Source: a virus. From it: a stretch of 25,125 nucleotides of DNA. The translations under genes and the position numbers were made by a program. The DNA is taken from positions 4,962-30,086 of IMG/VR virus record IMGVR_UViG_3300030451_004264, one strand, 5' to 3'. The notes beneath the pieces are model-generated. The model did no database searches. It saw only the letters and a list, made by a program, of their open reading frames with translations, and had not been told where the DNA came from. This document shows positions 1 to 25,125 of this stretch, one piece after another (position 1 is the first letter of the stretch; each line of letters opens with the position of its first letter).

Positions 1-1
1 C

Positions 2-895
2 ATTTACACTTCTCTTTACTCCTTCGATGAGGCAGGCAATTATGATTCTGCCGTCATGGATAGGGCATGGTGGGATTTCGACATGAACGACGATTTCACG
101 ATGGATGATGTCAAGCATGATGTCGCCGCACTGATTGAGCGTTTGGATGGCGATGTTCGCCTTGTTGCTACTGGGCGTGGATTCCATGTTCACCAATTGT
201 TCAAGCGACCTGTGCGTGGTCGGGAATGGGCAATCCACCTTGACCGCTATGAGCGCAAAATGGCGGAGGGTTTGAGCAGTCTTGACGGCGTTGGTTATCC
301 CGAAAAGTTGACAAGAGTTTCGGGCACATACAACCCAAAGCGCAGAAAGTGGGCAGTTTCTATACCTGCAAATGAGTTTGCGCAGAATCCTTTTGATTTT
401 CCGATTCCCAGTAAACCTTTACCGCATTACAGACATTTATGCCCGTTTCAAGGCTCTTTTTCGGTAAATGAATGCTTTGATTTGGTTAAGTGGGCACATG
501 AGAACCCCGTTCCTATACGCAAGCAGACATCATTTGTTGGCGAAGGTGTTTCAGTTGGCGCAATAGTGGGTGAATGCGCACTGCCCGATTGTCTTGAGCG
601 TGCAATCCGTGTGAGCAACCCACCGCATCATGTCCGTGTAGCACTGGTTCAAGAAATGCGCAGACAGTTGGCGTTTTACGCACCCCCCTCCGCTTTATCC
701 GAAGAGGAAAACCATGAAATTACAGACAAGATATGCCTATTCATAGAAGGTCTTAACTGGCAAGACTACAAAGAGGCGATAACACGAAAGTATGTTGCAG
801 GCGCAGTGCGCAAATATGAACACGCACCCTCTCCACTGTGGTATCGCAAACACAATTTATGCAATGGAAAAGGATGTTGGTTTTGTGCGCAATGA
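2..895 (+). CDS. Archaeo-eukaryotic primase, PriS-PriL-like fusion (5' end outside window)
   Basis: Likely synthesises RNA/DNA primers for virus replication. The frame is open to the left edge (first full codon at 2) and the peptide before the first ATG (56) already looks primase-like (SLYSFDEAG), so the true start is outside. Seen: an acidic catalytic motif WWDFDMN (about 68-88), the second AEP motif TGRGFHVH (about 170-195) and a basic R-x-x-GTYNPK segment (about 317-345). From about 560 the sequence resembles PriL C-terminal domains: PDC, then NPPHHVRVAL, and a terminal CNGKGCWFC. Cysteines at ORF residues 174/179, 227, 269, 274 and 277 (counted from the ATG at 56) could supply the four ligands of a [4Fe-4S] cluster. 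Catalytic and Fe-S regions in one chain instead of separate PriS and PriL subunits is a compact virus/plasmid-type arrangement. Family call is fairly sure; Fe-S binding is inferred. Confidence 0.8.
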   Translation: MYTSLYSFDEAGNYDSAVMDRAWWDFDMNDDFTMDDVKHDVAALIERLDGDVRLVATGRGFHVHQLFKRPVRGREWAIHLDRYERKMAEGLSSLDGVGYPEKLTRVSGTYNPKRRKWAVSIPANEFAQNPFDFPIPSKPLPHYRHLCPFQGSFSVNECFDLVKWAHENPVPIRKQTSFVGEGVSVGAIVGECALPDCLERAIRVSNPPHHVRVALVQEMRRQLAFYAPPSALSEEENHEITDKICLFIEGLNWQDYKEAITRKYVAGAVRKYEHAPSPLWYRKHNLCNGKGCWFCAQ

Positions 896-1088
896 AGAAG
901 AATTAAAGGACATGCTTAAACAAGCATCGCAGTTGCGGGATAGATGGCTTCAATGCTTGACCGATAAAACATACGCAGACAACAAGCAAATGGTTGCGGC
1001 GGTTCGCAACTACAACGCTTTGCGTGGAGTCATCAAGACTTTACATTGGGTTTTGCGCCATCCACTTGCAGAATCCCCTCTCCGATAA
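864..1088 (+). CDS. Small helical protein of unknown function, overlapping the primase end
   Basis: A 74-aa ORF that starts inside the primase Cys-motif codons in another frame and overlaps its end by 32 bases. The frame is open further upstream (first ATG 792), but that part reads like a shadow of the primase, so I chose the ATG at 864 (MEKDVGFVRNEEEL). No Shine-Dalgarno precedes it; a GTG at 885 is another possible start. The peptide is charged and mostly helical, with no membrane segment and no family I recognise. The same-strand position between primase and nuclease suggests a replication-module accessory protein, but that is inference, and the ORF itself is only moderately certain. Confidence 0.5.
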   Translation: MEKDVGFVRNEEELKDMLKQASQLRDRWLQCLTDKTYADNKQMVAAVRNYNALRGVIKTLHWVLRHPLAESPLR

Positions 1089-1129
1089 GACACTGTGTTA
1101 AATACCTCTTATGCGCAGAACAACACTTG

Positions 1130-1831
1130 ATGATAACGGCAGACGACAGGGAGAATGAGAAACTTCTCCATCGACTGTTCGTTAAGGTTGGCAATCGAAA
1201 GACAGACCCCAAAGGGCAATGCGTCGTCAAAAGACTGCGCACTGGCGATTACATCATCGGTGATTACGGGATTGAGGCGAAAGAAATCAATGACTTGTAT
1301 CGGAGTATTCTCGGTATTGGGCGCAATGGGCGCACAGTCAATCATCAGTTGGCGGAGTTGTGCGAAGCAGTCGAATACCCAATCCTTGCAGTTTACAACA
1401 CAACGCTCAAACCATACTTCAAAGGGCGCAAACCAAAGAGGCAAGAAGTTGCAAGAGAAATACTGCGCCAACAAAGAGTCATCAAGTCATTCAAAATGAC
1501 GCTCTATTCAAAGTTTCCAAAGGTTCGATTGATTGAGTTTGCAGACATGGATGAGTTTGTCGAATGGCTCGCTATCCTCAATATGAATAGCGCAATGCGT
1601 GGAAAGTTTAAGCCAGTGCCTCGAAACCAACCTCCCGATGACCCACGATTGCGTGCGCTTTGCGCAATTCAAGGGATTACAGAACCGATTGCCGTCGACA
1701 TAATGAAGAAGTATGGCTCATTGCCCGAATTGCTCAAGGCAAAAACTACTCAAAAGGATTTGATGAAAATTAAAGGCGTTGGTCGCACTATTGCTCGCCG
1801 AATCAAGGAATTGAGAAAGCAGTGGGTTTAA
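1130..1831 (+). CDS. ERCC4 (XPF/Hef/Mus81)-type structure-specific nuclease with C-terminal HhH domain
   Basis: A 233-aa protein. ERCC4 nucleases cut branched, flapped or forked DNA, which suits processing of replication or recombination intermediates of the virus. Seen: N-terminal ITADDREN strand, then the nuclease core with TGDY (residues 38-41) and EAKEIND (49-55), followed by NHQLAEL and YPILAVY. This matches the family pattern GDY...ERKxxxD except that the central Arg is Ala; Glu, Lys and Asp remain. Residues about 175-233 form a helix-hairpin-helix domain (AIQGIT..., then KIKGVGRTIARRIKEL) as in archaeal XPF. No helicase domain is present, unlike Hef. The ATG at 1130 begins exactly at the conserved strand; an in-frame ATG at 1046 would overlap the upstream ORF and add a non-conserved tail. 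It ends 104 bases before the convergent tail gene. Confidence 0.85.
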   Translation: MITADDRENEKLLHRLFVKVGNRKTDPKGQCVVKRLRTGDYIIGDYGIEAKEINDLYRSILGIGRNGRTVNHQLAELCEAVEYPILAVYNTTLKPYFKGRKPKRQEVAREILRQQRVIKSFKMTLYSKFPKVRLIEFADMDEFVEWLAILNMNSAMRGKFKPVPRNQPPDDPRLRALCAIQGITEPIAVDIMKKYGSLPELLKAKTTQKDLMKIKGVGRTIARRIKELRKQWV

Positions 1832-1855
1832 TAGAGAGTCCAAGCAAGGGTATAT

Positions 1856-1926
1856 TGCGGGGCAAGAACCCAACAACAACTCCTTCGTTTGTTTCTTGTT
1901 TCTTTCCTCACCTCTCTTGCCCCGCA
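1856..1926. terminator. Convergent intergenic hairpin with T-rich loop, probable bidirectional terminator
   Basis: Perfect 12-bp inverted repeat: 1856-1867 (TGCGGGGCAAGA) pairs with 1915-1926 (TCTTGCCCCGCA) across a 47-base loop. The loop is pyrimidine-rich on the plus strand, with repeated T runs at about 1888-1906. It lies between the end of the plus-strand nuclease (1831) and the end of the minus-strand tail-tip gene (1936). The T-rich tract fits an archaeal terminator for the rightward module; the GC-rich stem could stop both directions. A replication or packaging role cannot be excluded. Confidence 0.55.
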
Positions 1927-1935
1927 TCCTACTCA

Positions 1936-4900
1936 TCAATAGGGCTTCATGCTATTGCTTTGAGCCGTTCCAACATTGCTATAACGACGCAATTTCACGG
2001 ACAAGGAATGAACCTTGATTGAATAAAATCCCGATTGGATTGTTTCATTGCCCTGTGCGGGTCGACGCTCGATGCGCACATTGATTGTGTTGCCTGCTAC
2101 ATTTGCGCCTCTCAAAGAAGAAGGATGGAAAAGGGTGATTGCCCTTCTCACGGTATTTTGGTCTGCGTTTCCTTTGACTGCTATCGTTTGCGTCTGTTCT
2201 TCGCCTGTTTCTGCGCAACTCACTACGGTTGTGATTTCACCGATGTTTGAAGTATCTCCGCCGAATGTCAACTGCGCAACAACCGACACGAAACCGCCTT
2301 CGCTCACATCATTCGGAACACGAACATTGATTGAATGGCTATTTATCTCGCCCAGTTGACCCATTTCGGGGTCGACAATCCCTGCGAGAACAAAACCATC
2401 GCTTGTCATAACGCTTGAGCCTTCGCTTGTAGCCAAAGACGATTCGATTCCGTCAATATCACGGTCGAAAGAGAGCGATGATGACGGTCTGTTCTGCCCT
2501 ATAACTCCAAATTGCCCTGTGGATAGCCCTACATCGCTTGCAAACGACGCTTTTCCTTTCAAGCCCCTGTATGCCCCCGAACCCAAAAGGTTCGCAGAAA
2601 GCCCGTTAAACGACGATTCCGAGTCGCCTGTTCTCGACACGCCCAAAAGACCGCCTACTGGCGCAATAGTGCCGCCCCCGCCCAAAGGTGGGATTGGTTT
2701 GTTTGGTTGCGTTGTAGGTGGCGGGAGAGGTGGCGTTTCGGGTCGTGGAGGTCTGTTGTTTCCTCCGCCGCCTTCTCCGACAATTTTGACAAAACTTGCA
2801 AGACCATACTTGAAGTGTTTTTCCGTTCTTTGCAAATCCAAAACAACATTGTCAATTTTTTGCTCATCCTTAGTCCATTGAATGCCTGCAATGTTCAGCG
2901 TTTCGGTTTCTAAATCAATGTGGGTATCTGTCAATGAAACGGTCGTTGCAGGGATGTAGTTGATGTCCTTGACGATTTTGACTCTCGGCGCATAGTAAAG
3001 TGCCCTTGTTGACATCTGTTCTCCAAGACCCGCCAAGTGATAACCCAACGGGAATGCACTGCGCATATTGCTCACATTGCCCGAATACGCAAAGCCAAAC
3101 ACGCTATGCGAGTTTTCCAAATGCTCACTGCCCGAACCACTGTTTGCATCAATTTCTTCGCTCATTCTGCGCAAAAGACCCATGAGGTAATCGTAGTCAA
3201 CACTGAATGTAATGTATCGAGCAGTGCTTGAGTATGTCGTTGGCACTTGCACCCGATAAAGTCCATTTCCTGTAATTTCAATACTGGAATACGCACCTGT
3301 TGTATATGAAGCAGTGTCATATTCGGGAGGCAAACTGCCGCTTTTCGCACTATCAAATGGAATGTCAAACAAGTGCAATCGGAATCGTGCGTTGTCTGTT
3401 GGTGGGTTTGCGGCTCGACCATCTGCGCCGTCGCCATCAATAGTGATACAAAGGCGCAAATCCTGTGAAGTGCCATTGCTCACAAGAGGCATGTCTTTGT
3501 CGACATACATGACCTTCAAACATGGTTGCAGACTGCGTGTTCCGTATGTTGGATAGCCACGATGACGAGGCGCAACTGGAACAAAGTCTATCGGGTATTC
3601 TGTGTTGCTTGACGGCAGGCTGAATCCACTTTTACAGAAGATGCTAATTTTTGCTATGCCGCCTCCCGAAGTCAAAGTGTGATAACCATTTGACAGTGCT
3701 ACTGCCGTTCCGTATGCTTCTCCACCCCACTTAAACTGCGCCGTTCCCGCCGAATTGATTTTCAGCGTTCCGCCTATTCCCATACCACCAATGTTGCTAC
3801 TTCGCACTTGTATATTGTGCGCAACGGAGGGGTCGGGGTTGGGAATAGCAATTGTGTAGCCGCTTGTGCTATTTTGACTTTGGCTTGTAATGTCGGAGGC
3901 ATTGCTTTCGTGCGCAAATCGGGTGTTGTTGCTCAAACGATAGTCTTGAATGCCGTTGTATCGGAATCCTCCCCATGTGTTGTTCCATGAAGCATTGCTT
4001 TTGCGCCCATACAAATAATTGCGCACAAATGCGTCGTTGACATAACCATACCTGCCTCCGTCGAGCATTTTATTTTTGTCGCCTGCCTCAAGCATCACTT
4101 CTGCGCTGATTGAAACCTGCGCATCCTTTTCACGCAAAAACTCCTGTTTAGCAAGAGCCAGTGCTTCATCACGACTAAACACCTTTGGATGTTGCAAGAC
4201 ACGCCATCGAGTCAATGTTTGTGGAGAGGGTGTAGGAAAATCAACAAAGTTTGAGTTGCCGTTAAAGTAAACACGAACATTGGTGATTTGAGAACCGAGT
4301 CTTGTCGTCATGTTTGTTGTTTTTAAGTTGTTTCTTGTGAATGCAAATCCGCTTGTCATCTGTTGGCGCACAGTCAAAATGTTATCTCTATCCATCAACC
4401 AGTTGAAAGTTGTTTGATGCGTTGCGCCGTTTCCATCCTTTGCAACAATTTCTTTTGCAATGTTAAGTAGTGTGGAGTTTTTGCCATCAAACGAAGAACC
4501 GAATGAATCCCTGTCCGATGAGTTAACTGCCTTGAGCATGTTTCTTGTAGGAGTCATTTGATAGGAACATGGGAGAGTTGAGTTTTGCCCCCATGTATCT
4601 GCAAATGCAAGAGTAAACATACTGCGCAGTTTGTCATCTGCGTAGTATGTGCCTACATTTTCGGACTTGATAACTCCGTCAATGTTGACAGAAAGGCGCA
4701 GTGGGAATAGCGCAGAAGGTGTGTTAAACACTTGAACCGTTTGGAATTGCCCAGTTGAGTTTTCATCTTCGGGATTTTTGAGAGTAATGGTGGCTCTCGA
4801 CGCAGGCGTAATACCTGTTCCCGCCAAACCTTCTTTTTCCGAAGTAAGAATGGTGTTGATACTGCTAATTTCACCAATCAACTTTGAGTCAATTGAAGTG

Positions 4901-7900: not shown

Positions 7901-9234
7901 GATACTTGGTCTGCGCCGCTTGAATAGCGCATACGCTGAACGGGAGGTGGATAAGTGCCTCCGAGTTTCCAGTTGAGGGGCAAAGCAACTGCCGCCCTGT
8001 CAATTAAAGTATCAAGAACAACGCAGTTTTCTGTGCCGTTTGCAGACCATTTTGCGTCAAGACTCCAACCAATTGCGGTATCAAATGGCACTGCGGTATT
8101 GACAGAACCAGTTGCAAACGCCGTAGTGTCATCATTGGCGTATGCCTCCCATGTGTTTGTGTTAAAATCAAAAACCACATATACATCAGCCCAAATGTTA
8201 TCTGCGTTGTAGGGTGTTTCTGTGCCGCCATTCCACTTTTGAATGCCACTAATCCCTAAGTTTGCAAGAGTAATGTTAATTGTAGCAAGTGAAGCAGTGT
8301 CATTAAAATCATCGGAGGTCGTTGAATAGATTGCGCTATCTTTGTATCCAATTTTGAGAATGTAATTGTCAAAAGTCCAATCGCCAATTTTGTGCGCAGA
8401 AATGCGCAGATGGAACATTTCACCCAAACCACGCAGTCTAATTGCGCCATTGTAGGTCAAAAGACGAGATGTATGCGCAGAATTAGCATCATTGTAAAGT
8501 GAGTTAACCATGAAGTTTTTACCCGATGGCGATTGCACTTCTTGTAGGTATTTTTGTGGTCGTGTTTGCGCAGTATTGTAGCCTGCTTGTGCTTCTTCGC
8601 CAGTATAAACACCCGCAAAGGATGTCATTTTAATTTCACCTTCGAGATTACTATACAATAAGCGAGAATAACCACCCGCATGTTCCATGTTAAGTAGCGA
8701 CAAACCTGTTCCTTTTGGAGTAAAGTATCTGTCGCCTCCAAGTGTAGGGTCAATTGTTCCAGTAGGCATGTAGTAAGAACCTGCTGAATCGTGAGAGTTT
8801 GCAATGCGCAAATAGCCTTCTGTTCCTGTTCCATTCCATTTATGTCTGTTCGCCGCAAGACTTGTAGGTATTGATAGGAATGATTGCAATTCGGGTTTTG
8901 AACCATCAGTATTTGTAATGTCAACAGTAATCCATTCGTGAATCCCACGATTCATTGTTAACTTGTTATCTGCATCAGTGAAAAAATCATGCCCAAGATT
9001 CAAAACTGGGTCATTTTCGTGATACTGCCCACTGCGCAAACGGTCATAGTATGAATGTTTGAATCGTGGATTAAGGACATTTTCACCATTCAAAAGACTG
9101 CCAAAGTGCGATTTTGTGTGGTCGATAGTGCGCACACTACCTTCATTTGCATCATCTGCTACTGCAACAGACGAATGAAAATCGTCATAGTATCCTGTAA
9201 GCCAGTAAGTTTGCTCTAATGTAATTGACTTCAT
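1936..9234 (-). CDS. Giant multidomain tail-tip protein (baseplate hub plus receptor-binding/fibre domains)
   Basis: 2432 aa, the last and largest gene of the structural operon, overlapping the tape measure stop by ATGA. This position is where tailed viruses encode the distal tail, hub and host-binding parts. Seen: an N-terminal beta-rich region with a LamG/concanavalin-like stretch (about residues 265-420). A hub-like block follows (about 430-540; FGYIEGI, then a D-rich segment ending VLDRVLP) typical of tail proteins that plug the tube. A GDTTIFIDD...FSWTGK beta microdomain lies near 1390-1435. A second hub-like block is near 1585-1720 (LNIAKEIVAKDG, MDRDNILTV, LGSQITNVRVYF). A Pro/Gly linker (about 2155-2190) precedes a C-terminal beta domain (about 2310-2432). 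Cysteines are few, with no obvious signal peptide. No collagen repeats, endosialidase or peptidase motif was recognised. Probably several normally separate tail-tip proteins in one chain. Role confident; domain borders approximate. Confidence 0.75.
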   Translation of the reverse strand: MKSITLEQTYWLTGYYDDFHSSVAVADDANEGSVRTIDHTKSHFGSLLNGENVLNPRFKHSYYDRLRSGQYHENDPVLNLGHDFFTDADNKLTMNRGIHEWITVDITNTDGSKPELQSFLSIPTSLAANRHKWNGTGTEGYLRIANSHDSAGSYYMPTGTIDPTLGGDRYFTPKGTGLSLLNMEHAGGYSRLLYSNLEGEIKMTSFAGVYTGEEAQAGYNTAQTRPQKYLQEVQSPSGKNFMVNSLYNDANSAHTSRLLTYNGAIRLRGLGEMFHLRISAHKIGDWTFDNYILKIGYKDSAIYSTTSDDFNDTASLATINITLANLGISGIQKWNGGTETPYNADNIWADVYVVFDFNTNTWEAYANDDTTAFATGSVNTAVPFDTAIGWSLDAKWSANGTENCVVLDTLIDRAAVALPLNWKLGGTYPPPVQRMRYSSGADQVSTMQLTILDDMNEYALSALTTGSSATEWRLISFIDNESRPIWFGYIEGIKHDQDSKGKTLSTTIDARDSTGVLDRVLPIWETGQNAFLSLNQHISMDSINIRRTFESEALLSTMLFGAHSLTIGENSLGFNKWNVNESGTKYTADVNGRNQLYSGQAIQMYIGEDEYGANEIEAEWEGMYSSDTGLSDVFALGEHEPTGKLAFWVKYDTHYDGAVPSFGSSTDFEATLSSFRGITTADSITVKGTDGYDGTYPINSIKILRKMQQGSSGGSGYVNVNTTDYFVRIETSTTFAFADAGDKVFTVERLSRNYTNALTSYSSILTSNGKQNIEVKTNTHQQTEVPIAATMTTTSAHGLSVGDWFILPDGIKSAHTGKYHYHCEPFQVESVHSSTKVGFVAPYDAFGGGIVGLIPATADRPEIMRLGAYDGNSNPIAHRKPETSPVLYKTAPSTIALYERVKHSRIHARWMRDIAKSPFFRAQFGVIKDVPYWRSGEKSALHWVKSPNYIAAGHSVAGYNSDGTASAWNGLNQVHHAVGGANEINGACTTLKFNEAGMWHFIKKYNMEDTGIILELLDTETNESQYVIGNTVSDPSITDTIDYDASNDTFTITGTNTVALGDIVIHEGFRHFDLNGVFQVIARASSQIYQVCRVHFEPMIDEFSYVKAKYQGNSQWSLGSAHYFNDPDAIKVRRQDVDFGGARAISFNQTPITQSGGKLRKGNIEIGGIKGIKKTFDPAKTIYTLRQIDESNGYKHCYVLWADMRNDGRANADGGLRKTDFGIVLPTPSNYEINVALADQINENGEPDVFTSLKIGEDVDMWSFDATNEPFTGLAWSSLNGCSNHETLDDRYHNWETKGGSFLILDASRFYNLNTMSTGGRSGYKSGGLVDFGDYVLATRGFPYLTDAYYKAGIASYQTSDSSKIVSHKNSLYMLNDKTILSADITLGDTTIFIDDNSLFNTSGTGAIICQAGDNRSQEDLIYYFSWTGKGHDAVKGDKLTGVFITSIDSKLIGEISSINTILTSEKEGLAGTGITPASRATITLKNPEDENSTGQFQTVQVFNTPSALFPLRLSVNIDGVIKSENVGTYYADDKLRSMFTLAFADTWGQNSTLPCSYQMTPTRNMLKAVNSSDRDSFGSSFDGKNSTLLNIAKEIVAKDGNGATHQTTFNWLMDRDNILTVRQQMTSGFAFTRNNLKTTNMTTRLGSQITNVRVYFNGNSNFVDFPTPSPQTLTRWRVLQHPKVFSRDEALALAKQEFLREKDAQVSISAEVMLEAGDKNKMLDGGRYGYVNDAFVRNYLYGRKSNASWNNTWGGFRYNGIQDYRLSNNTRFAHESNASDITSQSQNSTSGYTIAIPNPDPSVAHNIQVRSSNIGGMGIGGTLKINSAGTAQFKWGGEAYGTAVALSNGYHTLTSGGGIAKISIFCKSGFSLPSSNTEYPIDFVPVAPRHRGYPTYGTRSLQPCLKVMYVDKDMPLVSNGTSQDLRLCITIDGDGADGRAANPPTDNARFRLHLFDIPFDSAKSGSLPPEYDTASYTTGAYSSIEITGNGLYRVQVPTTYSSTARYITFSVDYDYLMGLLRRMSEEIDANSGSGSEHLENSHSVFGFAYSGNVSNMRSAFPLGYHLAGLGEQMSTRALYYAPRVKIVKDINYIPATTVSLTDTHIDLETETLNIAGIQWTKDEQKIDNVVLDLQRTEKHFKYGLASFVKIVGEGGGGNNRPPRPETPPLPPPTTQPNKPIPPLGGGGTIAPVGGLLGVSRTGDSESSFNGLSANLLGSGAYRGLKGKASFASDVGLSTGQFGVIGQNRPSSSLSFDRDIDGIESSLATSEGSSVMTSDGFVLAGIVDPEMGQLGEINSHSINVRVPNDVSEGGFVSVVAQLTFGGDTSNIGEITTVVSCAETGEEQTQTIAVKGNADQNTVRRAITLFHPSSLRGANVAGNTINVRIERRPAQGNETIQSGFYSIKVHSLSVKLRRYSNVGTAQSNSMKPY
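4945..4962. repeat. 18-bp repeat, copy 1 (tail-tip gene)
   Basis: TTTTCCAGTCCATGAAAA, identical to 16772-16789 in the connector gene. On the minus strand both copies encode the FSWTG part of a shared beta microdomain, so the identity extends to DNA level. Confidence 0.8.
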
Positions 9235-12200
9235 ACTGATATACCCCGATTGCTTAACTCCGCTACTACTCCATCTGCTACTTGACTCACCATTTCGGGA
9301 AGTGTCATTCCATTAAAGACATTGGTTTGGATAATTTCTGTTTTATGCAGTAGGTTTTCGATACCGCCCTGCGATACTTGCTTGTAAAGTGCGCCCGTAA
9401 AGTTTTGTCGTTGACCGAAGAATAATTCTTCTCTTGCATTTGCAAACTCAAACATTTCGCCCATAGTTTGCGCATTTGCTTCTGTGATTTGCCTTATCGA
9501 CGCTTCATGGTATTCTTCTTCAATAGTTAACATTGCATCAAGGAACTTCTTTTTTGCCATTAAGCCATCATAAGAGTAATCAGCGTTAATCTGTTTCACC
9601 CTGTCAAGTGCCTTTTTTTCACTTGTAAAAATCTCTTCATGTTGCTTTCCTTGTAAATCTGTATATTGAACCATATATTCATCTTCACCAAATGAAATGT
9701 AGGGAACGCCAACCGCATCACCAAGAATACCAGTAGGTATTCTTTCTTCTCCGCCTAAATCTGTTTTGAATCCGCCGCCAAAATTGCCGCTTGCAAGGGC
9801 TTCATTTACTCTCTTTTGTTCCTCCATTGAATCGCTCAAGTTTTCAATAGCAAACTTTGCTTTGTTAGCCGCCGCAATTCTATCCTTAATATCAGCGTTA
9901 AAAGCCTCCGAGCCTGTTCCACTGACGGCTTCAAGAGAAGCCAATTCAGTGTTGATGTCTGCAAGGGATTTTGTAATGAGTTGTGGATTTTTGATTAAAT
10001 CTTGCGCAGAATGGTCGACAATACCTGCAAGCAAGGCATCTTCGTTTGCTATAATTGATGAAAGACTTGACTCCATTGTGTTTAGACCATCGTTAAACTC
10101 ATTAAGGTTGTCAAGAGGACTTGCAAGGAAACTGTCGCCTACAAACGCCTTAACCATCATGTAGCCTGCGGCAATAGCAAGACCTGCGGCAACAAGACTT
10201 GCACCTGCCGTTAATCCTCCTTGTAGCACAATTGCGGCGGCTTGTTGGATGTTCATTCCTTTCAGTGCCGCAGTCTTAGCCATCAATGCGGGAACGGCTC
10301 GCATCAGCATCATAGCCGCCATTCCACCCATCATAACAGTCATTGATTCTTCGGCATCAACAACAAACGGCAGAATCATTGTCAACGGCATCATTGCTCG
10401 ATTGACATTGTTAATTGAAAATCCAAGACGCACTGCCGCAACGGAGGATTGACCCATTGCAATTGCATTTGCTCGGAATCCAACTGTTGATTTAGAGTTT
10501 GTTGCAATTTGTTGTTTTGCGGCGGCATCTGCTTGTTGTGATGCTACAATGCTCATTTCAAGCGTGTTATTTTTCTTTTGTAATGACGCAATGTTTGCTT
10601 CAAGCAATGATATTTCTTCTATCAAAGCAGGGTTAACTTTTGTATTTGTCAATTCTGCACGAATTAAATCGCTACGAATGATACCTATTTTGACTCTTGA
10701 CTCTTGAATCAGCGCATTGTTTTTCTGTATCCGTAATGCCGCTTGATTTTGTTCTGCTTGTGTCAAAGGAACAAGAAGTTGATATTCTTGATTCATTATT
10801 GCCTGTTCTTCTCGACGAGCATTTGTCAAAGCAACTTGAGCCTGCACTCTTTCTCGCATCCCCATTGTTCCCGACGCAAGAAGTGAATTGAAATTAGCAG
10901 TAGCAATACCTGCCTGTTGATTTAGGCTTTTATACATCATCATTTGTTGTTGGAATGGTTGCATGTGCCCTGCAACAGTTGCAAAAGCACTTCCGCTTTG
11001 CGTCAATTTCATGCTTAAATCTTGCAGTGCTTGTGCTTCATAAAAGACCATTCGCCCAGTATATTGATGTATTCTTGCTTGATATGAACCAGTTGCGCCA
11101 TACTCTTGTTGTTGCAATGCCATTAGGCGCACAGTTTCAGTATTGTTTCTTTGCGCAATTGCAAGACCTTGCAACTCATTGCGATAATAGCGCACTTGAC
11201 CCATGTTGTTGACTAATTCTTGACGATAAATGCGATTTTTTGCAGTCAATGCGCCAAGATTTACATTTGCGTTGACCGAGTATTCGTTTTCAACTTGATT
11301 TGAAAACTTTACTGCTTTTGCTTTTTCAAGGAACACATTGCGCTGATTAACGGTTTCTGCGCTCATTGCTCGTTGAACTGCGCCAAGTGTGCGAAAAGCA
11401 ATAATCATGTTAAATACTTGAAAACCAACATTTGCAAACGGCGCAATAAGGTTTTGATAAAGACCCGCAGTGCGAATAACATTTGTCATTACATCCAAAC
11501 CAAAGTCGGTTTCGGATAAATCACGAATAACAGTCAAATAATGATAAGTGGCTTCTTCTGCTTTGAGGTATGCGGGGGCAAGATTTTCACCAATTTCCAC
11601 ACGCACATTTTCAGTGATGGCTCGCAACTGTTCCATATCGAACACTGCTGATTCTGCACGATTTGAAAACTCATCAAGTGCGCCATATACGCCATTATAT
11701 GCGCTTGTTTGCAATTCAACAAGACGCTCTTGATTTTCCATAAGTTTGAGAAACTTAACATAGTGTCGAGAACCTGCAACTGATACGGCAAGATTTCGCT
11801 TTTGCTCGGCAGTCATAGTTTGATAAGCAGGCGCAATCTCTTTCAAGATGTCCGATAGTTTCATTTGTGTAATAACCGAAGCATCAACGCCGCCCATCAA
11901 CTCTTGTAGGGTCTTAACCGCATCGGTATTTTCATTTCCAATGCGCTGATAAATCATACGCAGACCTGTTCCCGCACGACTTACTTCTTCACCAGTTTCA
12001 AGCAACAACGCCGACATAGCCGCCATTTCACCAATAGATTCACCCGCAATGTTTGCCTGCGATGCAAACTGGTTAAGAACGAAGGTAATGTCCTCCATCG
12101 TTGCAACGGAGGTGTTTTCGACTGTGTTTAACTGGTCGAGAACACGCAAAGTATTTCCACGCACAACATTTGCTTGTTGTTCTGCGCTAAGAGCATCATA

Positions 12201-12722
12201 CTGCGCCTTAGTCAAATTGCCCATCATAAAGCCAGTCTGTTGCGCAAGAGCAATCAAACGGTTCATACCCATCTCGGTTTCCATTTCACCGACTGCCGCC
12301 ATCAAAAGACCTGCTCTTGTGGCTTCAATAATTGCTTCTTGCGACTCAAGAACCTGTTTCAACTGCGCAGTCCTTGCGCTTGCGGCAAGTGCTTGTTCAC
12401 CGCTAAATGCAAACGATTCACCCAGTTTTACTGCTGATGCGGCGAACCTTTCGGTTTCACCATCCATGCCTTGATAAAACTTTCTAACACGAACAAGTTG
12501 CCTTTCAAACTCATAAAAGGAATCAGTGATTTCGGCTACTGCATTGAGTATGCCTTCTGCCATTTCATCAAAAGAATCTGCAATGTTTGCGGCGGCATCA
12601 GCCATAATAGCAGACTGAACAGTAGCGGCAGACTGTGTATCGCTGATGAGTTTTGAGGCTTGAAATGTTCCGACAACATCGAAAAAGACTCTTGCCGCAC
12701 CTGCTCTTGCCATATCAACCAC
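9231..12722 (-). CDS. Tail tape measure protein (TP901-type core)
   Basis: 1163 aa, the ruler that sets tail length and occupies the tail tube. Seen: an alanine-rich helical N-terminus, then a segment typical of the TP901 tape-measure core (FAFSGEQALAASARTAQL; MSALLLETGEEVSRAGTGLRMI; SVAGSRHYVKFLKLM; residues about 70-350). Long coiled-coil stretches follow (about 440-745). A hydrophobic block (about 770-900; MMPLTMILPFVV, MGGMAAMMLMRAVPALM, VAAGLAIAAGYMMV) could insert in the host membrane. No lysozyme or peptidase motif was seen. Its N-terminus overlaps the G-T extension by 8 bases and its stop overlaps the tail-tip start (ATGA), both signs of translational coupling. At about 0.15 nm per helical residue this predicts a tail near 170 nm. 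Very likely correct. Confidence 0.93.
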   Translation of the reverse strand: MVDMARAGAARVFFDVVGTFQASKLISDTQSAATVQSAIMADAAANIADSFDEMAEGILNAVAEITDSFYEFERQLVRVRKFYQGMDGETERFAASAVKLGESFAFSGEQALAASARTAQLKQVLESQEAIIEATRAGLLMAAVGEMETEMGMNRLIALAQQTGFMMGNLTKAQYDALSAEQQANVVRGNTLRVLDQLNTVENTSVATMEDITFVLNQFASQANIAGESIGEMAAMSALLLETGEEVSRAGTGLRMIYQRIGNENTDAVKTLQELMGGVDASVITQMKLSDILKEIAPAYQTMTAEQKRNLAVSVAGSRHYVKFLKLMENQERLVELQTSAYNGVYGALDEFSNRAESAVFDMEQLRAITENVRVEIGENLAPAYLKAEEATYHYLTVIRDLSETDFGLDVMTNVIRTAGLYQNLIAPFANVGFQVFNMIIAFRTLGAVQRAMSAETVNQRNVFLEKAKAVKFSNQVENEYSVNANVNLGALTAKNRIYRQELVNNMGQVRYYRNELQGLAIAQRNNTETVRLMALQQQEYGATGSYQARIHQYTGRMVFYEAQALQDLSMKLTQSGSAFATVAGHMQPFQQQMMMYKSLNQQAGIATANFNSLLASGTMGMRERVQAQVALTNARREEQAIMNQEYQLLVPLTQAEQNQAALRIQKNNALIQESRVKIGIIRSDLIRAELTNTKVNPALIEEISLLEANIASLQKKNNTLEMSIVASQQADAAAKQQIATNSKSTVGFRANAIAMGQSSVAAVRLGFSINNVNRAMMPLTMILPFVVDAEESMTVMMGGMAAMMLMRAVPALMAKTAALKGMNIQQAAAIVLQGGLTAGASLVAAGLAIAAGYMMVKAFVGDSFLASPLDNLNEFNDGLNTMESSLSSIIANEDALLAGIVDHSAQDLIKNPQLITKSLADINTELASLEAVSGTGSEAFNADIKDRIAAANKAKFAIENLSDSMEEQKRVNEALASGNFGGGFKTDLGGEERIPTGILGDAVGVPYISFGEDEYMVQYTDLQGKQHEEIFTSEKKALDRVKQINADYSYDGLMAKKKFLDAMLTIEEEYHEASIRQITEANAQTMGEMFEFANAREELFFGQRQNFTGALYKQVSQGGIENLLHKTEIIQTNVFNGMTLPEMVSQVADGVVAELSNRGISV

Positions 12723-13361: not shown

Positions 13362-13398
13362 ACTTTTTCACTTCTCTTTGCTATACTTTACTTTACTA

Positions 13399-13590: not shown

Positions 13591-13604
13591 TTAAGCACCA
13601 CCCA

Positions 13605-14657
13605 TCAAGCATCATAGTTGGCTACAATCGAAGAGTCTGCACCTTTGCACACAATTTGCATCATTTTGTTCGCATCGCCCAAATCATAAAGGGCGTGGAA
13701 GTTAACGCTCATAGTTTGAGAATCACGACCCGATACAGAAGTTTCGGGCATCTCAAAGTGAACCTTGAAGAAATCAAATCGAATAAAGTTGTTTGCATCG
13801 ACTTCAAACAAGGCTGAAATAGCAGGTGCGGCAGAACCGGGATTAAAGATTCCTTGACCGTTGGTTGCAGTTGCGCCCATCAATTCATCAAAGAATGGTT
13901 CATTATCTGCAACATCGCCAGTAAGCAAAGACTTGTGGAAAGTCAATGAACCACTGATTTCTCTTGTAGTGGTTGGTGGGGCACGAATGCAAGTTTCCGA
14001 AGCAAGACTGTATGAGTTTTCAATATCCCTGTTGGTCTTGATTTCAAAGTCAATACTTTGCACAAGATTGGAATGAGCAGAACTTGTTGCCGCCGCTTCA
14101 AATCTCACAAAGGACTTTGCAAAGTGTGCCGCATCACCAGTGTAAGTAGGAACGGAGGTTGAAAGAGTTTCAGTTGACGACTTTTGACCTGCGCCAACAG
14201 TGTTAACAGTCATCATTGCGTATTCTCCAACGCTTGCAGAAACGCTGATAGACTCGATAACTTGACCGCCAAAGACATGCTCTTTTTCATCACGACCAAT
14301 TTTGAAAGTGTATGAAGGCAATTCGCCTTGCTCGTTAACATCCAACTCGGCAAAGGTTCTTTGGTCTGCTTTAGTTGAGCCTTCGATGTCCTCGCCCATG
14401 ATACCATGAAGGCAAGTGAAAGTAAAAGCGTCGGGTTGCAAAGCCATGCTGATTGAACCTTCTGCGGTTTTCTTGCTGACAATTGCTTTTGCCGCACCTT
14501 GATAATTCATATCATTGCGCTTCATTACATCAAATGATTGTTGGAATGATTCGGACTCAACTTCGCCAACGACACCGCCGCTTGGAGAAGAAGATGGGTT
14601 GTAATCCGTTGAGGATTCTTTTACGATTTTAACATAGCGTGTATGGCTACTGGGCAT
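13605..14657 (-). CDS. Major tail tube protein
   Basis: 350 aa, placed between the tail terminator and the chaperone/tape measure genes, the standard site of the tube protein. Seen: an N-terminal SSHTRYVKIV strand, a Ser/Gly-rich loop, and alternating beta strands with SMALQPDAFTF and SFVRFEAAATS. Later segments SLTFHKSLLTGD, FEVDANNFIRFDFFKVHF and the late SVNFHALYD strand resemble tube proteins, where the last strands pack as inner-tube sheets. It is larger than the smallest tube proteins, so it may carry an extra surface domain. No sheath gene lies next to it, implying a non-contractile tail. No ribosome binding site precedes the ATG; a TATA-like sequence 46 bases upstream may give a short leader. 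Confidence 0.85.
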   Translation of the reverse strand: MPSSHTRYVKIVKESSTDYNPSSSPSGGVVGEVESESFQQSFDVMKRNDMNYQGAAKAIVSKKTAEGSISMALQPDAFTFTCLHGIMGEDIEGSTKADQRTFAELDVNEQGELPSYTFKIGRDEKEHVFGGQVIESISVSASVGEYAMMTVNTVGAGQKSSTETLSTSVPTYTGDAAHFAKSFVRFEAAATSSAHSNLVQSIDFEIKTNRDIENSYSLASETCIRAPPTTTREISGSLTFHKSLLTGDVADNEPFFDELMGATATNGQGIFNPGSAAPAISALFEVDANNFIRFDFFKVHFEMPETSVSGRDSQTMSVNFHALYDLGDANKMMQIVCKGADSSIVANYDA

Positions 14658-14703
14658 GAATCAAATGAAGCGTTGCTTGTCTATTAAACACTTCTATCAA
14701 AAT

Positions 14704-15809: not shown

Positions 15810-15811
15810 AT

Positions 15812-16525
15812 TTATCCTCTCCTTGCCGCCATAATACCTGTTCCACCAGTCTTTGTAGTAGCACTTGAGCCTCTTGCACTGATTGAACTTGTTTGTGAAA
15901 GGCTAAAGCCTGCAAGAACCGCCGCAGGTATAATCGCACCTGCGTCAACTCTTTCTTCAAAATACTGCTTAAACTTTTTTTCAATTTCTCCTATGTAGTC
16001 CATTGTGTCATAAAAACCGGGATGTGATGCTCTCATGCGCATACCTGTTGAAATCCAATTCCTTGCGCCAGTTGATTTATACCATCGTGTGCTTGACATA
16101 ACAAGCATAGGCAAGTTTCCGTATCGAAATGGGTCAATTCCTTTTGCAACAATGTGCGCAAGTCGACCGCCTCTTTGACCGAGAACACCAACTGCGGCAT
16201 CCTGTATTGATTTTCCAGTATGCACTGCATATTCCATTTGTTTGTATCTATGAATCTTCAAAGCATTAGCAACTTTTACATGGATATTTGTTGATTTACC
16301 GTATCCAAGTGTAGGAGGAACACGAACATTAGCAAGTGCGCCTGCTTTGCTTTTCAAATCACTGCGCACTTCTTCCATCATTGCAGTAATACCTGCACGC
16401 ATAAACCCATCGAGTTGTCCTTCACCTTTGTTTTGCAATTCACGCAAAGCCCTGCGCAAAGGTTTTTGGTCGACATTGATTGTAAAATCACTGTATGAAC
16501 CACGACGAGTAAAAGTTTGAGTCAT
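15812..16525 (-). CDS. Neck/tail completion protein, HK97 gp10-like
   Basis: 237 aa. It begins with basic TFTRRGSYSDF and a helix LRRALRELQNKG, then GFMRAGITAMMEEVRSDLK and a variable loop, the general pattern of HK97 gp10-type neck proteins that cap the connector and join head to tail. A conserved-looking LAHIVAKGIDPFRYG is followed by RNWISTGMRM and SHPGFYDTMDYIGE, then a long helix IEKKFKQYFEERV near residue 190. The C-terminal 35 residues are Ser/Thr/Gly-rich. It is longer than typical gp10 proteins. Only a weak GTGAT element lies before the ATG, and the gene follows the connector stop by a few bases. Assignment by position and pattern. Confidence 0.65.
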   Translation of the reverse strand: MTQTFTRRGSYSDFTINVDQKPLRRALRELQNKGEGQLDGFMRAGITAMMEEVRSDLKSKAGALANVRVPPTLGYGKSTNIHVKVANALKIHRYKQMEYAVHTGKSIQDAAVGVLGQRGGRLAHIVAKGIDPFRYGNLPMLVMSSTRWYKSTGARNWISTGMRMRASHPGFYDTMDYIGEIEKKFKQYFEERVDAGAIIPAAVLAGFSLSQTSSISARGSSATTKTGGTGIMAARRG

Positions 16526-16531
16526 TTTACA

Positions 16532-17065: not shown

Positions 17066-17066
17066 T

Positions 17067-17559: not shown

Positions 17560-17663
17560 TTTTGTTCACCTGTTATTAAGTCTTTGTTGAGTTTTTTTTC
17601 TTCTGCATCAAGACGCTTTGATTGAGCGTCAAACCATTCATCCAGTATTTTGCATCTTGTCAT
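17556..17663 (-). CDS. 35-aa coupled small ORF
   Basis: Encodes MTRCKILDEWFDAQSKR followed by an acidic-basic helical tail ending GEQK. The start codon shares a base with the upstream stop (TAATG) and its TGA overlaps the next ATG (ATGA), so it exactly fills the gap between two genes. A GGTG lies 11 bases before the ATG. Probably one amphipathic helix. Function unknown; the exact packing suggests it is translated. Confidence 0.55.
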   Translation of the reverse strand: MTRCKILDEWFDAQSKRLDAEEKKLNKDLITGEQK

Positions 17664-21262: not shown

Positions 21263-21461
21263 CCTTTACCACCTTTGGTTTGATTGTCTTATCTTTCAAA
21301 GGGGCAGAAGGCTTTGGTTTCTTTTGCGCAAACTCGGCGCAAAGGTCGGAAACACTGCGTCTGCTTGTTTCTGCGCAAACCAAATCCTTTTCGGATTTCG
21401 TCAAAGCACGACCCAAACGCCTTTCAGCGTATTTGATAAGAAACTCGCTTCTTTCAGACAA
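21252..21461 (-). CDS. Small unknown protein with TTG start, downstream of the capsid gene
   Basis: 69 aa, starting TTG with a GGTGAT ribosome binding sequence five bases upstream, which decides the start. Sequence SERSEFLIKYAERRLGRALTKSEKDL is helical; the middle has two Cys (VCAETS, LCAEFA) and the C-terminus is Lys/Pro-rich and probably disordered. It begins 18 bases after the capsid stop and overlaps the next gene. No family recognised. Confidence 0.6.
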   Translation of the reverse strand: MSERSEFLIKYAERRLGRALTKSEKDLVCAETSRRSVSDLCAEFAQKKPKPSAPLKDKTIKPKVVKDEE

Positions 21462-21479
21462 CTAAATCACCGCCTAACC

Positions 21480-22382
21480 TCAAGCGGTAATGTTTGTAAT
21501 CTTGCAGATACGGTTGTTCTTTCCGCTTGCCGCACCGTCTTGGTGTTCGTGGACTACGCAACCCATGTATCCAGTAAGCATCCAGTCGAAACCAACGCCC
21601 GGAATACGGGTCAATTCAGTTTCTTGGAAACCGTCGCCGTTGTATTGAAGGAACTCGGCGGTTTCTGCGCCCGGAATTAGGAGTAGTGCGGTGTCATCAA
21701 GAAGGGAATCACGACTGTAATAGATAGTCAAGTTTGCCATTCTCTTCAAGTGGTCTTGAAGCGACTCGACAACATTGCCGTAAAGCGTGGTTTGCAGAAG
21801 GACACTGCGATGCTTAGTAGGAACGATAAGAGCCATTGGCTCGTCGCCGCCTACACGACCGTTCTCGAAGATTTTATCCATTGCGCCAAGAATGTTTGCT
21901 TCTGCGTCGCCGCTTCCGCTATCCCATTCCGAACCACCTGCAACTGCAAGGGATTGACCTGCACCATCAATAAGTGCAGAAATGATAAGGTTGTCAATAA
22001 CTGATGCTCGGTTGCGAACAATAGCCATTTGTTGCCTATCCATGTTCTCGAAAGTTTCACCACGAAGTAGCGTGGAGTCAAGGAAAATGCAACGACCCTG
22101 CCCCTTCTTCAAGTGAACGGAATAGTTTGCAGTGCCGATTTTGGTCGGGTCTGCAACTGCGTTATCAGCAAGAGGGTAAGTGAAAGTGCCTTCTGCACCA
22201 GTATACCATGTAAACTCAAGGTATGGAACTGAACGGACACCAACGACTTGCGTTCCGATTGCAATAGTAGTGGACTGCAATTCGATAAAATCACGAAGGG
22301 TTTGTTCAAGGACTGCATCGGCTTGACCGAATGCACCGTCTGCGGCTTCAACAGTTAGGATTTGCTCAAGTGTTTGATTCAT
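21480..22382 (-). CDS. Major capsid protein, HK97 fold
   Basis: 300 aa from the ATG at 22382, chosen because GGAG lies 8 bases upstream; an upstream ATG at 22397 would add five residues. HK97-type features in order: a helical N-arm (EQILTVEAADGAF..., residues 1-30) and a beta region with VRSVPYLEF (E-loop/P-domain, 45-100). A long spine helix follows (about 112-142; ENMDRQQMAIVRNRASVIDNLI), then an A-domain with DEPMALIVPTKHRSVLLQTTL, DDTALLLIPG and a final TRIPGVGFDWMLTGYMGCVVHE. The order protease-scaffold, decoration protein, capsid is standard. Codon use and palindrome content resemble the rest of the window. It should form the icosahedral shell. Very likely correct. Confidence 0.9.
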   Translation of the reverse strand: MNQTLEQILTVEAADGAFGQADAVLEQTLRDFIELQSTTIAIGTQVVGVRSVPYLEFTWYTGAEGTFTYPLADNAVADPTKIGTANYSVHLKKGQGRCIFLDSTLLRGETFENMDRQQMAIVRNRASVIDNLIISALIDGAGQSLAVAGGSEWDSGSGDAEANILGAMDKIFENGRVGGDEPMALIVPTKHRSVLLQTTLYGNVVESLQDHLKRMANLTIYYSRDSLLDDTALLLIPGAETAEFLQYNGDGFQETELTRIPGVGFDWMLTGYMGCVVHEHQDGAASGKNNRICKITNITA

Positions 22383-22411
22383 TTTTTTCATCTCCATTTA
22401 TTTTTTTGTCA

Positions 22412-22819
22412 TCAAGCAATGATGGATGCACCAGTCATCACAGGAACGAGGTCGCCTGCGGAGGAAGAAGTAGTCTTTCCTTCTCCGATGTAAAGTCCGA
22501 CTTTCTTGTTTGAGCCTGCGGTAGTAGTCAAAAGACCACCTGCACCTGCATAAACAGTAAGTCCAGTAGTGTAAGTTTGGGATGCGGCAGAAGCAATCAT
22601 CAGCACACCGCCCATTGGGGTATAGCCGACCGTTCCGCCCGACACAAGACCGCTTGCATCACGCTCGGATTCATCCATTGATACACCGAGAGCGACTTCG
22701 CCTGCGGCAGTCAAGTCGAGTTTGTTGTTTGTTCCATCGTTAGTCAACAGATAACCTGCGCCAACAACAGTCGTTCCAGACTTTAGAGTAGCATTTCGTG
22801 GGGTATTCATTGCAGTCAT
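22412..22819 (-). CDS. Capsid decoration (cement) protein
   Basis: 135 aa between scaffold and capsid genes, the usual position for decoration proteins that bind the outside of the shell and stabilise it. The sequence is small, Gly/Ala/Thr-rich and all-beta (GYLLTNDGTNNKLDL, GEVALGVSMDES, GGTVGYTPMGGVLMIA, KVGLYIGEG), like the small trimeric capsid proteins of other tailed viruses. AAGGTGAT precedes the ATG by five bases; a second ATG three codons on is possible. No Cys or membrane segment. Good positional and compositional support. Confidence 0.75.
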   Translation of the reverse strand: MTAMNTPRNATLKSGTTVVGAGYLLTNDGTNNKLDLTAAGEVALGVSMDESERDASGLVSGGTVGYTPMGGVLMIASAASQTYTTGLTVYAGAGGLLTTTAGSNKKVGLYIGEGKTTSSSAGDLVPVMTGASIIA

Positions 22820-22830
22820 TTTTCATCACC

Positions 22831-25125
22831 TTAAATCAAGTTTTTCATTTTTGCCTCTTCAAAGGTTGGTGCGCCTTGACGCTCAACTTCGGATGCAGAC
22901 AGGGTTTGATTCCATGCCTTTGCCCAAGCATTCCATGCCTTTGCATAGAGGGATTCGGGGGTCTTAACCAATCTGCGGTTAAGGTAATTTGCGACCACTG
23001 CTTCTTTTTCAGCAGGGGTTGAAACAGATGCTTCAACATTGCTTGCAACTGGGGTCATTTCCTTTTCGACAGGCTTGATAGCCTCAAAGGATGCGATAAC
23101 AGATTCGAGGGATTCGACAGGAAGTGAATCAACACCTGCAATTCCTAACTCGGTAGCCTTTTCGACAAGAGCAAGGCGTGCTTCTTCTGCCTTTGCTTCT
23201 TCGTCAGCCTTAATTGCGTTCAATTCTGCTTCTTTCTCGGCAAGTGAAGCCTTTAGAGCCTCGATTTCTGCGGAGTAGTCAATAGTTGCTTCTTCTGCGA
23301 TAGGAGTTTCGACAACTTCCTCTTCGCTAATTTCGGATGCGATGATTTCTTCGGACATGTTATTCATTCCCGTTGCGATAGTTTGGAGAGAATGCGGTTG
23401 ACTATTAAACTCTTCTGCTGATTTTGAGGGAATTACTCTTTCAACGCTTTCAATTTTTGCGCCGTTGTATGCAGGCTTGTGAACAATTGCAAGATGGTCG
23501 AACTCAAAATCGGATTCAAACAACATAGTCATGCGACCATCTTCTGCTTCAAACATGTCATCAGGAATACCACTGCCACCAATAGATACTCCATAACCCT
23601 GTCTTAACCAAAGCCCCGACTCAAGAGCCTCAAACAACTCTTTTCGATGGACTTCGGCTTTGAAACGAACATCCCAATCGCCACCCATTTTGTCAACAAC
23701 ATAGGCTTCTGTGATAAATCCAACTACTGCTTCTTCAACGCCGCCATTCATGTTGCGCTTAAAGCGACCATTTTCGGATGTAGGGTGTTGTAGTGTTAAG
23801 TCTGCGCCAACCATTTGTGAAACTGCAAGGTTTGCGCCTTTTCGAGTAATCTCCCAACCGTTTTTGTTGATTCCTTGATGGAATGCAATACCCGATATTG
23901 CAACAATGTATTCACCAGTTGATGCTTGAAGAACCATATCATCAACAGTAATTTCAACATCAATTTGGAAATCTGCTTTTACACATTGTCCGTTCTGCAT
24001 TTTGTATCCCTTTCTGCAACCATTTTTCTTCACGGAAGGTTTTGAGTATGAGTAGCCACCGCCACCGCCGCCATATCCTTCAACATCTTCTTTGAAGTTA
24101 TGACCTTTGTGAGCCTCCATACATTCTTGACTATCAAAGCCCATTTCTGTGCAACGACTCATAAACTCGTCATGCGATTCAGTGTCGTTTGGTTTTGGCA
24201 ACTCTTTATCGCCATGTTTCATTGCTTCAAGTGATTCGCCACTACAACCGCAACCGCAACCGCCCATATCATTTGCTACGGGAGAGTCTGTTTTATTAAA
24301 CTCATCATTGCTACTGGTATAATCGGAAACAGACTTATTTCTTTCCCACATTTTACAAGACCAGTAGCGAGGCGTTGTTTTGTCCTTTGCTTCTGCGCAG
24401 TTATGCCTATCACGGAATGCTTTGCGCCGTTTTGGGTCATCACGCTTAATTTCCATATTTGGGTCGCCAAAACGAACAATGATTACATTGCCTTTTTCAT
24501 TTTGCACATAAACTGCAAACTTCTTTGATTCTTTTGGTGTTCGGAATGGTTTGTTCAATTTTACTTTGCGCCCTTGATATTCTGCGCCTTCAAACTCAAC
24601 TCCATCCCAGTCCTCATAATCCTCTCCGCTTTCGTCTGCTCTCGGATGTGATTTAGGCAACAAGTCGTTGTCTTGCTTGTAATTTGGATTGCTCGGTCGA
24701 CCATTGCGCAAAAGATACAGGAATGCTTTGACTCTTGCGATACCCCAACCACCCCTTGACATGTTTGGTGCGTGTGAACGAGAAAATGCACCTGCGCCTC
24801 TTCGATAAACAGACTTGAGGCGACCCATGCTTGCTTTTGAGCCTTTACCTTTCTTTTCGACTTTTTTGTTATGCTCTTGCATCATCTTGCGCAAACGGGC
24901 TTCTGTTTCCTTGCTAATTTTGATTGAGTTGTTTGGTTTCTTAGCAGAACCGGGTTTATTCTTTTTTGACCCTTTGCGCCGTTCACTTGGTTTAGCGGGA
25001 GTTTTTCGTGGGTCATTTTTAGGAGGTCGCCCGTATTGTAGTGCGCTTAACTCTTGTTCTGCATCGGGGTCATTTTTTCTATACCATTCAATAAACTCTT
25101 TTTCAGTTTTTGCAGGGGAATATAG
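22831..25125 (-). CDS. Head polyprotein: basic N-terminal domains, prohead protease and scaffold (5' end outside window)
   Basis: At least 764 aa; the frame is open to the right edge, so the start lies outside. In order: a basic disordered segment (about 25050-24830; RRKGSKKNKPGSAKK). A head-associated domain (about 24830-24670; GAGAFSRSHAPNMSRGGW, then RVKAFLYLLRNGRP) follows, then a second one (about 24560-24340) with RFGDPNMEIKRDDPKRRKAF and TPRYWSCK. A Cys-rich stretch (about 24275-23990) contains GGCGCGCSG. The protease domain (about 23980-23430) has TLQHPTSENG, supplying the candidate His, GVSIGGSG, supplying the candidate Ser, and FDHLAIVHKPAY. A coiled-coil scaffold (about 23358-22831; SAEIEALKASLAEKEAEL) ends PTFEEAKMKNLI. 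Prohead proteases digest scaffold during head maturation, so a fused scaffold is functional. The upstream portion may continue into a portal or MuF-type gene. Confidence 0.75.
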   Translation of the reverse strand, partial: LYSPAKTEKEFIEWYRKNDPDAEQELSALQYGRPPKNDPRKTPAKPSERRKGSKKNKPGSAKKPNNSIKISKETEARLRKMMQEHNKKVEKKGKGSKASMGRLKSVYRRGAGAFSRSHAPNMSRGGWGIARVKAFLYLLRNGRPSNPNYKQDNDLLPKSHPRADESGEDYEDWDGVEFEGAEYQGRKVKLNKPFRTPKESKKFAVYVQNEKGNVIIVRFGDPNMEIKRDDPKRRKAFRDRHNCAEAKDKTTPRYWSCKMWERNKSVSDYTSSNDEFNKTDSPVANDMGGCGCGCSGESLEAMKHGDKELPKPNDTESHDEFMSRCTEMGFDSQECMEAHKGHNFKEDVEGYGGGGGGYSYSKPSVKKNGCRKGYKMQNGQCVKADFQIDVEITVDDMVLQASTGEYIVAISGIAFHQGINKNGWEITRKGANLAVSQMVGADLTLQHPTSENGRFKRNMNGGVEEAVVGFITEAYVVDKMGGDWDVRFKAEVHRKELFEALESGLWLRQGYGVSIGGSGIPDDMFEAEDGRMTMLFESDFEFDHLAIVHKPAYNGAKIESVERVIPSKSAEEFNSQPHSLQTIATGMNNMSEEIIASEISEEEVVETPIAEEATIDYSAEIEALKASLAEKEAELNAIKADEEAKAEEARLALVEKATELGIAGVDSLPVESLESVIASFEAIKPVEKEMTPVASNVEASVSTPAEKEAVVANYLNRRLVKTPESLYAKAWNAWAKAWNQTLSASEVERQGAPTFEEAKMKNLI

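What the first reader, a model, noticed from the sequence alone, without database searches (positions are those of the whole stretch)
1..25125. Seven tetranucleotide palindromes are absent and one is very rare
Reading the window by eye, I found no GATC, AGCT, GTAC, ACGT, CTAG, GGCC or CGCG, and only about five CCGG (near 13831, 16017, 21598, 21671, 24951). At about 43 percent G+C each mixed palindrome should occur about 90 times and each all-GC one about 50 times. The component trinucleotides (AGC, GCT, GGC, GCC, GTA, TAC, ACG, CGT, GAT, ATC) are common, so composition does not explain it, while CATG, TGCA, TCGA, GCGC, AATT and TTAA remain abundant. Palindrome avoidance is known for viruses facing type II restriction; losing eight at once is extreme and would imply hosts with many restriction systems or a special replication constraint. 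A few sites may have been missed by eye.
Basis: partly seen in the sequence, partly recalled or inferred. Interest (0 to 1): 0.85.

Follow-up and report, generated by a model that had tools for sequence, protein, structure and literature searches.

The report
Viral genome stripped of restriction sites
This archaeal-type virus genome has lost almost every copy of eight four-letter DNA words and about twenty longer ones; most are words that restriction enzymes cut, so the virus appears to have made itself hard to cut by a large and changing set of host DNA-cutting defences.

Summary
Codon-preserving shuffles expect 37-86 of each. The avoidance goes beyond palindromes: the record also lacks non-palindromic words such as GTCTC, GTCCC and GAAGAC. 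Across 32 related virus records, eliminated words are enriched in known restriction specificities, including asymmetric ones (odds ratio 8 for 5-mers, 26 for 6-mers), which argues against a palindrome-specific replication constraint. GATC and AGCT are gone from nearly all relatives; other words switch on and off between lineages. Between two 90%-identical genomes 0 of 54 GAAGAC sites survive, while control hexamers keep 62-73%. Poseidoniales genomes show only mild depletion, in MGIIa-like genomes mostly of the same palindromes. Best explanation: repeated purging of sites under restriction by a host population with diverse, patchy R-M systems. The kind of strategy is known (HF1-group haloviruses); this is an extreme variant (8 of 16 tetramer palindromes, against 1-2 in three haloviruses tested). 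The enzymes responsible were not found, and the Poseidoniales host is an inference.

The parts
1..25125 (.). Whole window: free of GATC, AGCT, GTAC, ACGT, CTAG, GGCC and CGCG
   Evidence: codon shuffles
13837..13840 (.). CCGG site 1 of 5
16017..16020 (.). CCGG site 2 of 5
21599..21602 (.). CCGG site 3 of 5
21671..21674 (.). CCGG site 4 of 5
24950..24953 (.). CCGG site 5 of 5
1046..1831 (+). XPF/ERCC4-type nuclease with helix-hairpin-helix (context: archaeal-type virus)
   Evidence: Pfam ERCC4 E 1.3e-10, HHH_5 2.6e-6
9231..12722 (-). Tail tape-measure protein (context: tailed virus)
   Evidence: PHROG 28 E 4.8e-21, Pfam PhageMin_Tail 1.8e-13
21480..22397 (-). Probable major capsid protein, used to fetch relatives (no family match; call rests on size, position and conservation)
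   Evidence: 67 IMG/VR relatives at 54-96% identity

Best explanation
The genome is the product of strong, repeated selection for loss of restriction sites. Its ancestors infected host populations (most likely MGIIa Poseidoniales) whose strains carry different restriction-modification systems. In each lineage the words cut by common host enzymes were removed, mostly by single substitutions, until none was left; words no longer under attack can drift back. Shown here: total elimination, specificity for restriction-type words including asymmetric ones, site-by-site loss between close relatives, and lineage-by-lineage turnover. Inferred: that host restriction enzymes are the selecting agent, that the host is Poseidoniales, and that systems spread over a population rather than many in one cell supply the pressure.
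For: Eight tetramers at zero or near zero, against 37-86 in codon shuffles. Eliminated non-palindromic words are enriched in REBASE sites: 5-mers 10/67 against 3/399 in the window's record, 6-mers 10/186 against 2/1303 in G006; strictly asymmetric sites pooled OR 8 and 26. Host DNA and phages T4, lambda, T7, HTVC010P and P-SSP7 have 0-9 eliminated REBASE words, this group 8-36. 0 of 54 GAAGAC and 0 of 182 GTAGA sites shared between relatives, against 62-73% and 43-52% for control words. Trp-Pro, which forces GGCC, is absent only from the two GGCC-free records. In MGIIa-like genomes the palindromes eliminated in most viruses are the most depleted (rho -0.66, p 0.005).
Against: No cognate restriction enzyme was identified: the GATC-cutting DpnII family was found in 9 of 381 Thermoplasmatota, none of them among the genomes recognised as Poseidoniales. 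R-M genes in single Poseidoniales genomes are few. Longer avoided words are not depleted in hosts. Host identity rests on gene content, habitat knowledge and a post hoc correlation; capsid and tRNA tests gave nothing. Some eliminated words (GGACG/CGTCC, TCTAC/GTAGA) have no enzyme in the site list used.
Confidence: 0.88

Rival explanations
1. A replication, packaging or DNA-structure constraint of the virus itself selects against short palindromes (for example a palindrome-sensing nuclease or hairpin formation).
For: The most conspicuous losses are palindromes; GATC and AGCT are lost in nearly all relatives.
Against: Seven tetramer palindromes are never eliminated in any relative; the eliminated set differs between close relatives; asymmetric words are eliminated, with strong enrichment for known restriction sites.
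Confidence: 0.03
2. The virus (or a co-infecting element) encodes its own restriction enzymes to destroy host DNA and spares itself by lacking the sites.
For: 12 of 32 records encode type II-like DNA methyltransferases.
Against: Pfam and PADLOC scans of 69 proteins of G006 and G025 showed methyltransferases and Cas4-like nucleases but no type II endonuclease among the families listed (only the first 25 families are listed). The window's record has no match to the two methyltransferase families searched, and dozens of specificities would be needed.
Confidence: 0.04
3. The word bias is inherited genome composition shared with the host or with marine DNA in general.
For: MGIIa-like genomes are mildly depleted in several of the same palindromes.
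Against: Host stretches have no word below 10% of expectation, whereas the viruses have 8-36 such REBASE words; marine phages HTVC010P and P-SSP7 have 8 and 3. Codon shuffles exclude it.
Confidence: 0.02

Closest known systems
HF1-group haloviruses (HF1, HF2, HRTV-7 and others; Hafunaviridae) and other haloarchaeal viruses (BJ1, SH1, His2)
   Same: Archaeal viruses that completely lack GATC and CTAG (HRTV-7 also AGCT) and 21 hexamer palindromes (PMC7230728; BJ1 in PMC2194725). In my test HF2 has 34 eliminated REBASE words in 50 kb, as many as this group. Their toolkit includes PolB, an ERCC4 nuclease, Cas4-like nucleases and viral methyltransferases.
   Different: Only 1-2 tetramer palindromes eliminated in the three haloviruses tested, against 8 of 16 here; polymerase only about 24% identical; different habitat.
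Restriction-site avoidance in prokaryotic viruses in general (Rusinov et al. 2018, PMC6286503)
   Same: Elimination (observed/expected < 0.1) of recognition sites as an anti-restriction strategy.
   Different: That survey found elimination in only 3.9% of phage-site pairs and no systematic avoidance of type I, IIG or (bar a few) III sites; here dozens of words are eliminated in one genome, asymmetric ones and the type III site CAGAG included.
Magroviruses and other Poseidoniales viruses (Magrovirales, Adrikavirales)
   Same: Tailed dsDNA viruses predicted to infect Poseidoniales: a plausible home for this record, given its archaeal replication genes.
   Different: Kinship untested: no match of the capsid protein or Cas4-like nuclease in the GenBank phage collection; ICTV exemplars not held. 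The paper on magroviruses that I could search does not mention palindromes, restriction or methyltransferases.

Membership tests
Restriction-site elimination as an anti-restriction strategy | Recognition words at less than 10% of expectation with adequate expected counts | tested here: met
   Eight tetramers plus 17 longer REBASE words in the window's record
Restriction-site elimination as an anti-restriction strategy | Eliminated words are restriction specificities rather than arbitrary words | tested here: met
   Enrichment among palindromic and non-palindromic words
Restriction-site elimination as an anti-restriction strategy | Cognate restriction enzymes present in the host | tested here: inconclusive
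   Host not proven; patchy methyltransferases; GATC endonuclease family not found in the genomes recognised as Poseidoniales
HF1-group haloviruses (Hafunaviridae) | Sequence kinship of the capsid protein and polymerase | tested here: not met
   No capsid match; polymerase about 24% identical
Magroviruses / Poseidoniales viruses | Kinship to ICTV exemplar genomes | not testable with these tools
   Exemplars not held
Magroviruses / Poseidoniales viruses | Infects Poseidoniales | tested here: inconclusive
   Archaeal replication genes; host palindrome ranking fits MGIIa-like genomes; no binned or proviral copy found; tRNA test uninformative

The most novel reading that the evidence does not exclude
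These uncultivated viruses act as recorders of the restriction repertoire of their host population. Each genome carries a readable barcode of dozens of specificities, including asymmetric ones and some without an enzyme in the list used (GGACG/CGTCC eliminated in 19 of 32 records, TCTAC/GTAGA in 10, GAACT/AGTTC in 4). The barcode is rewritten within about 10% sequence divergence, and the hidden restriction landscape of an abundant uncultured marine archaeon could be read from it.
Probability: 0.45. Interest if true: 0.7.

Novelty: new variant of a known kind. Interest (0 to 1): 0.58.

Why it matters
Restriction avoidance is usually reported for one or a few sites. Here half of all tetramer palindromes and 17 longer REBASE words are gone from one 30 kb record, and the avoided set can be watched changing between relatives. 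That makes the pace of the virus-restriction arms race measurable without cultures, predicts specificities in the host population, and gives a list of words to look for in host methylomes.

Tried and rejected
Host by capsid gene in GTDB genomes: none. Host by viral tRNA-Ala: partial matches of 72-93% scattered over Thermoplasmatota, not informative. Methylate-or-avoid: sister pairs with and without viral methyltransferases compared; gains and losses of words do not track the methyltransferases in any simple way, so no specificity could be assigned. GATC endonuclease family DpnII in hosts: 9 of 381 Thermoplasmatota, none among the genomes recognised as Poseidoniales. Depletion of the longer avoided words in hosts: none. 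Three ICTV Poseidoniales virus exemplars: not held. Replication-constraint and composition explanations rejected (see rivals). Cautions: for non-palindromes the per-word numbers are per strand (half of all sites), ratios unaffected; the pooled Fisher tests treat related genomes as independent, so their p-values are nominal, but the single-genome contrasts stand on their own.

Full report
Observation. The window holds 0 GATC, AGCT, GTAC, ACGT, CTAG, GGCC and CGCG and 5 CCGG (13837, 16017, 21599, 21671, 24950), against 94 or 57 expected from composition and 34-94 from maximal-order Markov models; they are the eight lowest of all 256 tetramers. The rest of the 30,086-base record has none of them either. 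When synonymous codons are shuffled within the record's genes, every one of 200 shuffles has at least 23 copies of each of the eight words, with means of 37-86.

What the record is. A tailed virus with archaeal-type replication genes: an XPF/ERCC4 nuclease and, upstream of the window, a family B polymerase (G000 1270-3513) whose best-ranked GenBank matches are haloarchaeal tailed viruses at about 24% identity. Related records add polymerase, clamp-loader-like AAA, portal and terminase families, and RFC- and PCNA-like genes by inspection. 67 relatives were fetched from IMG/VR with the probable capsid protein; 31 of their parent records and the window's own record were read almost whole. No capsid relative was found in 50,697 phage records or in GTDB genomes.

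How far it extends. Across the 32 records GATC falls below a tenth of expectation in 31, AGCT in 28, ACGT in 26, CTAG in 23, CGCG in 17, GTAC in 14, CCGG in 4, GGCC in 2 and TCGA in 2; the other seven palindromes in none (counts). In records of 60-70 kb this means 0 GATC and 0 AGCT where about 220-260 of each are expected. Longer words go too: the window's record lacks CACTC, CAGAG, GTAAC, GTCAC, GAGAC, GCTCC, CCAGA, GCAGC, GTAGA, GGACC, CCAGG, GGGAC, GAAGAC and six further hexamers, five of them palindromic, on both strands. Relatives lack up to 21 of 29 testable hexamer palindromes.

Are these restriction words? I compared them with the recognition sites in the REBASE copy inside Biopython. 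Eliminated non-palindromic pentamers are 10/67 REBASE words against 3/399 others in the window's record; eliminated non-palindromic hexamers are 10/186 against 2/1303 in G006. Pooled, even strictly asymmetric sites are enriched 8-fold (5-mers) and 26-fold (6-mers) (nominal p-values, related genomes are not independent). CAGAG, unmatched in that list, is a type III site according to PMC6286503. Controls under the same test, up to 50 kb each: T4 0 words, lambda 2, P-SSP7 3, HTVC010P 8, T7 9; haloviruses HVTV-1 10, HRTV-27 22, HF2 34; this group 8-36; Poseidoniales and other Thermoplasmatota DNA 0. The total load is thus matched by HF2, but eight tetramer palindromes are matched by no control (HF2 has 2, T7 has 1).

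Purging can be seen. Between G013 and G015 (90% identical) all 54 aligned GAAGAC sites of one are altered in the other, 40 of them by a single base, while control hexamers keep 62-73%. Between G021 and G022 (82%) 0 of 182 GTAGA and 0 of 82 ACTCC sites are shared, against 36-52% for control pentamers. Between the window's record and G006 (73%) 0 of 17 GGCC sites are kept, against 26-66% of control tetramers. A switch already appears at 95% identity (GGACCC 12 to 0, L037/L038). The dipeptide Trp-Pro, which can only be encoded with GGCC, is absent from the two GGCC-free records (9.4 expected by composition) and present in all 30 others. Whether each switch is a purge or a regain after relaxation is not resolved without a tree.

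Hosts. They show mild depletion only. In MGIIa-like genomes AGCT (0.47), GATC (0.52), CTAG (0.57) and CGCG (0.64) are lowest, and the ranking over 16 palindromes follows the number of viruses that eliminate each (rho -0.66, p 0.005); the correlation is weaker and not significant for MGIIb (-0.27) and other Thermoplasmatota (-0.36). The longer avoided words are not depleted in hosts. DNA methyltransferases are patchy: PF01555 in 18 of 41 genomes, including a conserved ~318 aa enzyme in most MGIIa-like ones, PF00145 in 8 of 43 and PF02086 in 3 of 43. The GATC endonuclease family DpnII was not seen in them. No cognate enzyme is therefore identified.

Mechanism. Best supported: successive elimination of restriction sites under a diverse and shifting set of host R-M systems spread over the host population. 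Elimination, word specificity and turnover are shown; the enzymes and the host are inferred. Virus-encoded methyltransferases (12 of 32 records) may be a second, complementary protection, but none could be tied to a retained word.

Place among the known. The strategy is known from phages (PMC6286503) and most strikingly from HF1-group haloviruses, which lack GATC, CTAG and 21 hexamer palindromes (PMC7230728). New here are the degree at tetramer level, the extension to asymmetric specificities, the fast switching between relatives, and the lineage. I call it a new variant of a known kind.

Noticed in passing
window 1046-1831 (ends KELRKQWV); G000 1270-3513 (ends GADDRQWL); many ORFs of the related records: Unrelated replication and modification proteins (polymerase B, XPF nuclease, several cytosine-C5 and N4/N6 methyltransferases, a ~220-250 aa protein) share a C-terminal Trp plus Leu/Val/Ile. 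Trp at position -2 occurs in 103 of 1,335 ORFs, about 20 expected. It resembles a PCNA-docking tag and would imply methylation coupled to replication.
   Followed up: partly
L004, L005, L063: The non-palindromic tetramer AGTA (with TACT) is absent from the aligned parts of L005 and/or L063 but present (9-13 sites) in L004 at about 90% identity: a possible tetramer specificity of unusual form.
   Followed up: no
G025 2568-4127, G031 4322-5899, G030 2774-4297: Divergent GroEL-like chaperonins encoded by three related viruses.
   Followed up: no
L166-L177 (host loci), e.g. L172:1255-2211: A ~318 aa N4/N6 DNA methyltransferase is conserved in most MGIIa-like genomes and nearly absent from MGIIb-like ones; closest solved structure 2zie, putative modification methylase. 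Its motif is unknown.
   Followed up: partly
window, whole: GCGC is almost three times its composition expectation (162 against 57; maximal-order Markov 130), possibly because CGCG, GGCC and CCGG are forbidden.
   Followed up: no
window 1936-9234, - strand: One 2,432-codon open frame, probably a giant tail protein, takes up 29% of the window.
   Followed up: no
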